From Caulobacter sp. (GTDB lineage Bacteria > Pseudomonadota > Alphaproteobacteria > Caulobacterales > Caulobacteraceae), in contig JAUSMJ010000027.1 in NCBI GenBank assembly GCA_030645575.1, positions 1 through 64,000 on the forward strand: DNA of 64,000 bases. Reading direction: 5' to 3'. The translations under genes were made by a program, and so were the position numbers. The notes under the pieces were generated by a model. The model was not told where the DNA came from. It did not search any database and was given only the letters and a program-made list of their open reading frames with translations. Below, piece by piece: positions 14,159 through 14,929 of this stretch (position 1 is the first letter of the stretch; every line of letters begins with the position of its first letter).

Positions 14159-14890
14159 CTATCCCGGCTCCTCCTCGCCCACATAGTCCTGCACGAACTC
14201 GGGAGGCTCCCCTTCCCCACCCTCGAAATCGAGGGCGTCCTCGTCCTCGGCGGGGCGGGACGGGTCGGGCACATTGAAGCCGGGCGGCAGATCGAGGCCC
14301 AACAGGCCGGCGGCCTTCATGTCGGCCATGCCGGGCAGATCGGCGAGGTTCGCCAGCCCGTAGTGTTCAAGGAAGGCGTCGGTGGTGCCGTAGGTCACCG
14401 GCCGGCCCGGCGTGCGGCGGCGGCCGCGCATCCGCACCAGGCCCAGCTCGAGCAGGATGTCCAGCGTCCCGCTGCTGGCCTGAACCCCGCGCACCGCCTC
14501 GATCTCCGCCCGGGTGACCGGCTGGTGGTAGGCGATGATGGCCAGAGTCTCCTGGGCGGCCTTGCTGAGGCGCCGGGGCGTGTCGCGCTCCTCGGTCATC
14601 AGGAAGGCCAGGTCGATGGCGGTCTGGAAGCGCCAGCGGCCCGCGACGCAGGCCAGTTCGATCCCCCGCCCGTCACAGCGGGCGCGCAGCGACTCCAGGC
14701 CGGCCGCGACATCGGCGCCCTCGGGCAGCCGGCGCGCCAGATCCTCCAGGCTCAGCGGCTCGGCGGCGGCGAACAGCAGCGCCTCGATGCAGCGTTCGAG
14801 GAAGAGGTGATTGTGCGTGGTTCGAGACGCATCGCCGTCGCGATGCTCCTCACCAAGACGATCTGTGGTGGGATCCATGGCGTTCGTCAT
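14159..14890 (-). CDS. scpB: Segregation and condensation protein B
   Basis: FLERCIEALLFAAAEPLSLEDLARRLP; LAIIAYHQPVTRAEIEAVRGV. Confidence 0.95.
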   Translation of the reverse strand: MTNAMDPTTDRLGEEHRDGDASRTTHNHLFLERCIEALLFAAAEPLSLEDLARRLPEGADVAAGLESLRARCDGRGIELACVAGRWRFQTAIDLAFLMTEERDTPRRLSKAAQETLAIIAYHQPVTRAEIEAVRGVQASSGTLDILLELGLVRMRGRRRTPGRPVTYGTTDAFLEHYGLANLADLPGMADMKAAGLLGLDLPPGFNVPDPSRPAEDEDALDFEGGEGEPPEFVQDYVGEEEPG

Positions 14891-14929
14891 CCAGAGGAGG
14901 CCGCCTCAGCGGCCGTCTCGAAGGACGCA
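14814..14929. repeat. Dispersed structured repeat (family R, copy 3, inverted) overlapping the scpA/scpB junction
   Basis: TGCGTGGTTCGAGACG-CATCGCCGTCGCGATG-CTCCTCACC...CGTCATCCAGAGGAGGCC-GCCTCAGC-GGCCGTCTCGAAGGACGCA. Confidence 0.85.

What the first reader, a model, noticed from the sequence alone, without database searches (positions are those of the whole stretch)
14814..14929. A dispersed structured repeat spans the scpA/scpB junction and contains the overlapping stop/start codons
Three copies of a ~100-116-bp element are visible: 12161-12276, 14051-14150 and 14814-14929 (inverted). Shared skeleton: TGCGTCCTTCGAGACG-[stem]-CTCCTCAGGATGACG ... CGTCATGRTGAGGAG-[stem]-CGTCTCGAACCACGCA. In copy 3, read on the minus strand, the motif CTCTGGATGACG supplies the ATGA in which scpA stops and scpB starts. 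The last ~12 residues of ScpA (ASFETAAEAASSG) and the first ~26 of ScpB (MTNAMDPTTDRLGEEHRDGDASRTTHNH) are encoded by the repeat, just outside the recognisable ScpA/ScpB cores. This looks like a palindromic element inserted at an operon junction and domesticated into two proteins and their translational coupling, analogous to Rickettsia palindromic elements inserted in ORFs.
Basis: partly seen in the sequence, partly recalled or inferred. Interest (0 to 1): 0.8.

Follow-up and report, generated by a model that had tools for sequence, protein, structure and literature searches.

The report
Repeat supplies scpA stop and scpB start
In a Caulobacter species, a 116-base hairpin-forming repeat that is scattered through the genome has replaced the join between two neighbouring genes, so the repeat now encodes the end of one protein, the beginning of the next and the overlapping stop/start signal; related species have had other, unrelated repeats land at the same join.

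Summary
The three copies (12161-12276, 14051-14150, 14814-14929) belong to a family (R1) with about 155 half-sites in this 3.2-Mb Caulobacter genome (reversed-pattern control: 3). Each copy is two REP hairpins facing each other; 82 half-units show double compensatory changes. In 72 Caulobacter genomes the scpA/scpB join is ancestrally a 4-nt stop/start overlap. The closest relatives have 26-41 nt where the window has 122 nt, with shorter ScpA and ScpB ends. So the repeat replaced the old join and itself supplies the ATGA; both usable scpB starts lie inside it. A near-identical protein from another, short contig argues against misassembly.

Two other 4-nt overlaps in the same gene cluster are never invaded (0/70, 0/51). 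R1 is also read in the same frame in glyS (in-frame, 40 residues), cobA and purM, and the glyS site holds different insert sequences in sister genomes. REPs in coding sequence and RPE-like inserts are known, so this is a new variant of a known kind. Translational coupling through the repeat-borne ATGA is inferred, not shown.

The parts
14814..14929 (-). R1 REP dimer at the scpA/scpB join (116 nt); with 6 more bases it stands where close relatives have about 38 nt
14885..14929 (-). first REP unit: TGCGTCC..GGATGACG, inner stem GGCCGC/GCGGCC; encodes the ScpA tail and carries the ATGA
14814..14860 (-). second REP unit in inverted orientation: CGTCTTGGTGAGGAG..CGTCTCGAACCACGCA, inner stem GCATCGC/GCGATGC; encodes part of the ScpB N-terminus
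14887..14890 (-). ATGA: overlapping scpA stop (TGA) and scpB start (ATG)
14887..15729 (-). scpA (280 aa; SMC_ScpA domain residues 43-260; the last 13 residues are repeat-encoded)
14159..14890 (-). scpB (243 aa; SMC_ScpB domain residues 34-187; about the first 26 residues are repeat-encoded)
14051..14150 (.). R1 dimer (GACACG subfamily) between scpB and tatA
12161..12276 (.). R1 dimer between tatC and serS; the same site holds R1 in three relatives, in either orientation
15726..16751 (-). nagZ-like beta-N-acetylhexosaminidase gene; its ATGA overlap with scpA (15726-15729) is the uninvaded control junction

Best explanation
A dispersed REP dimer (family R1, two inverted hairpin units) landed at the scpA/scpB join of this Caulobacter lineage. 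With loss of about 38 nt of the old join, it replaced the last codons of scpA, the overlapping stop/start and the first codons of scpB. The conserved unit end CTCCTCAGGATGACG carries a ready-made ATGA. In this copy ScpA enters in the GCG-TCC-TTC-GAG-ACG (ASFET) frame, stops at that TGA, and ScpB starts at the overlapping ATG and stays open to the far end. The ancestral 4-nt overlap geometry, and presumably termination-reinitiation coupling of two subunits of one complex, was therefore regenerated by the repeat. Shown: dispersal, paired-hairpin structure, replacement relative to close relatives, coding of both tails and both signals. Inferred: the order of insertion and deletion, use of M1 rather than M5, coupling, and absence of harm. 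The join is a recurrent landing site: at least five other repeat families occur there in other Caulobacter genomes, but between the two genes.
For: About 155 half-sites in the genome against 3 in the control; 41 complete dimers compared, with double compensatory changes at two stem pairs kept in 82 of 82 half-units. Close relatives have 26-41 nt and shorter tails with the ancestral 4-nt overlap. The only in-frame ScpB starts upstream of the core are both in the repeat. P0001, from an 1869-nt contig, has the same repeat-encoded N-terminus with three substitutions. 24 of 72 genomes have an insert at this join, against 0 of 70 and 0 of 51 at two other 4-nt overlaps of the cluster. R1 is read in the same frame in glyS, cobA and purM.
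Against: The genome is a draft (83 contigs) and the junction was seen in one genome plus one protein of a short contig. No expression data. M5 is also possible, and P0001 was predicted to start there. The Shine-Dalgarno-like GAGG lies far (about 13 nt) from the ATG and inside a hairpin. The comparison with shuffles shows only a modest excess of ready-made overlaps.
Confidence: 0.88

Rival explanations
1. The repeat is at the join, but ScpB is made from M5, so the ATGA overlap is incidental: the repeat contributes protein tails and a start codon but no translational coupling by overlap.
For: M5 is in frame, and the gene caller behind P0001 chose it. 23 other Caulobacter genomes live with 115-172 nt between stop and start, so coupling is dispensable in the genus.
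Against: A -4 overlap is the ancestral state and is kept exactly. M5 has no better Shine-Dalgarno sequence by eye. Published reporters show that about 20 nt of distance nearly abolishes reinitiation whereas overlaps support it (PMC10666635).
Confidence: 0.25
2. The join is ordinary coding sequence that resembles the repeat by chance or by convergent composition.
For: The junction copy departs from the consensus at two of 62 fixed positions, and part of it is protein-coding.
Against: Full-length 116-nt dimer with both fixed ends intact; no such sequence in any relative at this place; window expectation 1.25 matches for one arm alone.
Confidence: 0.01
3. Assembly or binning error joined a repeat-bearing fragment into scpA/scpB.
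For: Draft genome of 83 contigs with 3% estimated contamination; repeats invite misassembly.
Against: Both reading frames run on intact into their conserved cores; the junction lies inside a contig of more than 124 kb; P0001 on another contig carries the same repeat-encoded N-terminus with substitutions.
Confidence: 0.03
4. The repeat was ancestral at this join and was lost precisely in the relatives.
For: Palindromic inserts are common at the join in the genus (24/72), and some inserts look orthologous with scattered absence, as if lost or recombined away (R3 group).
Against: All nine other genomes of the window's supported clade lack an insert and share the uninterrupted overlap. None carries R1 here, and their short junctions are unlike the repeat.
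Confidence: 0.05

Closest known systems
CGTC-tagged REPs of alphaproteobacteria (Di Nocera et al. 2013, PMC3733652), including Rickettsia RPE-4 and RPE-6
   Same: Short palindromic units with a CGTC end, mostly head-to-head dimers, high copy number, mostly next to stop codons, some in frame inside genes including tRNA synthetases, no dedicated transposase
   Different: R1 units are about 45 nt with interrupted stems; the defined 8-9 bp stem starting with A-T pairs and the CCA tail are not met. One repeat carrying both stop and start of a gene pair is not described there
REPIN / BIME (paired REPs mobilised by RAYT transposases; PMC3116915, PMC2817692)
   Same: Two inverted hairpin units around a spacer, dispersed, with unit-level structural constraint
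   Different: No R1 units flank the Y1-type transposase genes, and R1 is abundant in genomes without such genes
Rickettsia palindromic elements inserted in ORFs (as described in PMC3733652)
   Same: Palindromic elements of about 100 nt read in a constant frame inside unrelated conserved genes
   Different: Different bacterial order and sequence; here the element also holds a stop/start overlap and joins two genes
4-nt overlapping gene pairs with termination-reinitiation (PMC6728339, PMC10666635)
   Same: Geometry, and genes for subunits of one complex
   Different: The overlap sequence is contributed by a dispersed repeat rather than by the genes' own ancestral sequence

Membership tests
REP dimer (REP/BIME in the broad sense) | High copy number, dispersed | tested here: met
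   155 half-sites against 3 in the control; 41 complete dimers compared
REP dimer (REP/BIME in the broad sense) | Palindromic units with conserved structure | tested here: met
   Compensatory changes at three stem pairs across 82 half-units
REP dimer (REP/BIME in the broad sense) | Predominantly extragenic | tested here: met
   37 of 41 dimers intergenic by a simple gene call
REPIN sensu stricto | Associated RAYT transposase gene flanked by the same REP | tested here: not met
   Three Y1_Tnp genes in the genome, none flanked by R1; R1 abundant in genomes without a Y1_Tnp match
CGTC-tagged REP families 1-4 | CGTC at one end of the unit, head-to-head dimers | tested here: met
   Units face each other with ATGACG..CGTCAT
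CGTC-tagged REP families 1-4 | Stem of 8-9 bp beginning with complementary A and T, loop of 4-5 nt, CCA tail | tested here: not met
   Interrupted stem with C-G/G-C pairs at 6-7, T-T opposite at position 5, unit ends GGACGCA or CCACGCA (definition)
CGTC-tagged REP families 1-4 | No dedicated transposase | tested here: met
Rickettsia palindromic element-like insertion | Inserted in frame in unrelated genes in a constant reading frame | tested here: met
   scpA, glyS, cobA and purM all enter in the ASFET frame; glyS site empty in 8 of 12 genomes
Rickettsia palindromic element-like insertion | Sequence homology to RPE | not tested
   No RPE sequence was compared
Termination-reinitiation coupled gene pair | 4-nt stop/start overlap | tested here: met
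   ATGA at 14887-14890
Termination-reinitiation coupled gene pair | Downstream translation depends on upstream termination | not testable with these tools
   Needs reporter constructs or ribosome profiling

The most novel reading that the evidence does not exclude
The scpA/scpB join of Caulobacter is an expression-tuning hot spot where unrelated palindromic families are repeatedly recruited, each rewiring ScpB translation in its own way: R1 regenerates the stop/start overlap, the GGGGGAGG family puts a strong Shine-Dalgarno sequence 5-8 nt before scpB in five genomes, and others leave a long hairpin spacer that uncouples ScpB from ScpA, so the ScpA:ScpB ratio evolves by repeat exchange.
Probability: 0.2. 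Interest if true: 0.8.

Novelty: new variant of a known kind. Interest (0 to 1): 0.62.

Why it matters
It shows a dispersed non-coding repeat taking over three jobs at once at an operon junction (end of one protein, beginning of the next, and the overlapping stop/start) while keeping the ancestral 4-nt geometry. The genus offers a natural experiment: the same complex is encoded with an intact overlap, a repeat-made overlap, or spacers of 115-172 nt, so the importance of translational coupling for a condensin-type complex can be tested directly. The glyS site, occupied by different sequences in sister species, suggests that permissive positions in conserved genes are reused.

Tried and rejected
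Rfam: nothing at threshold, only chance hits. RAYT as mobiliser: not supported. Structure prediction of ScpA and ScpB with 30-row alignments gave low-confidence models (mean pLDDT 47 and 54), so nothing is concluded about the tails. The excess of ready-made stop/start relays in R1 copies over shuffles is modest (26% of frames against 20 +/- 2%; 90% of copies against 78 +/- 7%), so the repeat is not claimed to have evolved for this; R1 has in fact fewer fully open frames than shuffles (20% against 44%). Counting independent insertion events on the ScpA/ScpB tree (12 presence/absence changes, 16 changes among states) is a rough figure, because 27 of 69 inner branches are weak and loss or recombination may explain part of the pattern. 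The family labels R2-R6 come from motif matching and reading of the junctions, not from a formal clustering.

Full report
Observation. The outer 16-mer TGCGTCCTTCGAGACG occurs 6 times in the window with up to 3 mismatches against 1.25 expected. It occurs 155 times in the 3.2-Mb genome with up to 2 mismatches, against 3 for the reversed pattern. A blastn-type search with copy 1 finds about 40 relatives on the matching strand, most of them full-length. The organism is a Caulobacter species: best named relatives, same-genus group g1.

The element. 41 complete dimers taken from the genome share fixed ends and variable inner stems. Each dimer is two hairpin units in inverted orientation. In the left unit positions 6-7 are CC paired with GG; in the right unit they are GG paired with CC. 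All 82 half-units keep a pair at both positions (one G-U), and the exceptions to the left/right rule change on both sides; position 13 also covaries G-C to C-G. The hairpin of each half is therefore the constrained unit. Of the 41 dimers, 37 are intergenic, mostly close to stop codons (simple codon-usage gene calls that recover the window's operon).

The junction. In 72 Caulobacter genomes with both genes, the prevalent state is a 4-nt overlap (ATGA, GTGA or TTGA). The window's nearest genomes have 38, 38, 38, 41 and 26 nt between the ScpA and ScpB cores; the window has 122 nt. The ancestral sequence (such as CCGGAGGCGGTGGCGTGAGTGAT... in G026) is gone, and AAGGTGCG is followed directly by TGCGTCC...CACGCA. 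Hence about 38 nt were replaced by the 116-nt element plus a few bases. ScpA ends ASFETAAEAASSG instead of PEAVA or similar, and ScpB starts MTNAMDPTTDRLGEEHRDGDASRTTHNH instead of VSDTIFEA or similar. The Pfam domains (ScpA 43-260, ScpB 34-187) are untouched. Only M1 and M5 are possible ScpB starts upstream of the core, and both lie in the repeat. Protein P0001, from an 1869-nt contig, carries the same N-terminus from M5 on, with three substitutions overall, including H instead of L at the position where the repeat consensus reads CAT. This is independent support for the join and shows natural variation in it.

Recurrence. 23 other genomes carry palindromic inserts of other families at the same join, with 115-172 nt from stop to start. 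The families, named by motif, are TTCGACAAGCTCAGGATGAG, CCCCGGCGAANGCCGGGG, GGGGGAGG arms, CCGGGACCCAGGGG (GTCATCCCGG ends), and CCCCCTCAGTCGG. Four motifs were counted genome-wide. The first three are dispersed in the genomes that carry them (tens to over 200 copies); the CCGGGACCCAGGGG motif is found 18-24 times in G080 and G096 but only once in G088. The CCCCCTCAGTCGG family was not counted. In every one of these genomes the insert lies between stop and start, so the overlap is lost. Two other 4-nt overlaps of the same gene cluster serve as controls: nagZ-like/scpA is intact in 69 of 70 genomes (the exception has a 13-nt gap and no insert), and tatB/tatC is intact in 51 of 51 determined. 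These genomes are related, so the counts are not independent events. By published reporter work, about 20 nt of distance nearly abolishes reinitiation coupling (PMC10666635), so the spacer genomes presumably translate scpB independently. In five of them the repeat arm GGGGGAGG sits 5-8 nt before the scpB ATG as a ready Shine-Dalgarno sequence.

Other coding copies. R1 is read in the same ASFET frame in glyS (40 residues in frame after MGGYYAR), at the end of cobA and at the end of purM. In glyS the same site is empty in 8 of 12 genomes compared; it holds R1 in the window genome, an R1 GACACG-subfamily copy in G086 (judged from its ASFDTP..AAQDD peptide), and unrelated insert sequences in G025 and G079.

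How it works. Nearly every unit end CTCCTCAGGATGACG contains ATGA, and the opposite unit contains GTGA. About 90% of copies offer at least one frame in which an incoming ORF stops on such an overlap and the new ORF stays open to the far end; this is only modestly above shuffled sequence. The most likely history is a landing at the tolerated join, loss of the original stop and start, and survival because the entering frame met the repeat's ATGA and the outgoing frame joined the ScpB core. Coupling through it is inferred from geometry only.

Relation to the known. REPs inside ORFs, REP-donated stop codons, RPE-4 and RPE-6 as CGTC REPs, and the lack of a transposase for CGTC REPs are all described (PMC3733652). 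R1 resembles these but fails the stem and tail definition of the four CGTC families, and the RAYT criterion of REPINs, so it is filed only as a REP-type dimer. I found no description of one repeat carrying both stop and start of a gene pair, nor of the scpA/scpB hot spot, in the papers searched; the literature search was limited to open-licence papers.

Noticed in passing
L081:1501-1618 (G000:C50:3760-3877), glyS: R1 dimer in frame inside glycyl-tRNA synthetase beta subunit, adding 40 residues; the same site holds other insert sequences in G025, G086 and G079 and nothing in eight other relatives.
   Followed up: partly
L012:1403-1516 (cobA) and L007:1501-1615 (purM): R1 dimers that extend the C-terminus of uroporphyrinogen-III C-methyltransferase and supply the stop of purM; the cobA-type peptide also matches a 307-aa frame in G025.
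   Followed up: partly
window 12161-12276: The tatC/serS site holds R1 in opposite orientations in sister genomes with the same serS-side boundary (GGGCCGCTTTGCAA), as if the dimer had flipped or been exchanged.
   Followed up: no
scpA/scpB join of G002, G035, G021, G067, G018: The arm GGGGGAGG of another repeat family lies 5-8 nt before the scpB ATG and could serve as its Shine-Dalgarno sequence.
   Followed up: partly
glyS of 12 Caulobacter genomes, about residues 529-590 of the window genome's protein: A second region that differs strongly in length and sequence between close relatives.
   Followed up: no
G064, G013, G083, G096 and others: R1 is abundant in complete or near-complete genomes without any Y1-type transposase match, so its mobiliser is unknown.
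   Followed up: partly
scpB/tatA spacer, window 13937-14158 and relatives: Spacer varies from 102 to 758 nt across the genus; in G026 and G011 an R1 copy starts directly at the scpB stop codon.
   Followed up: no
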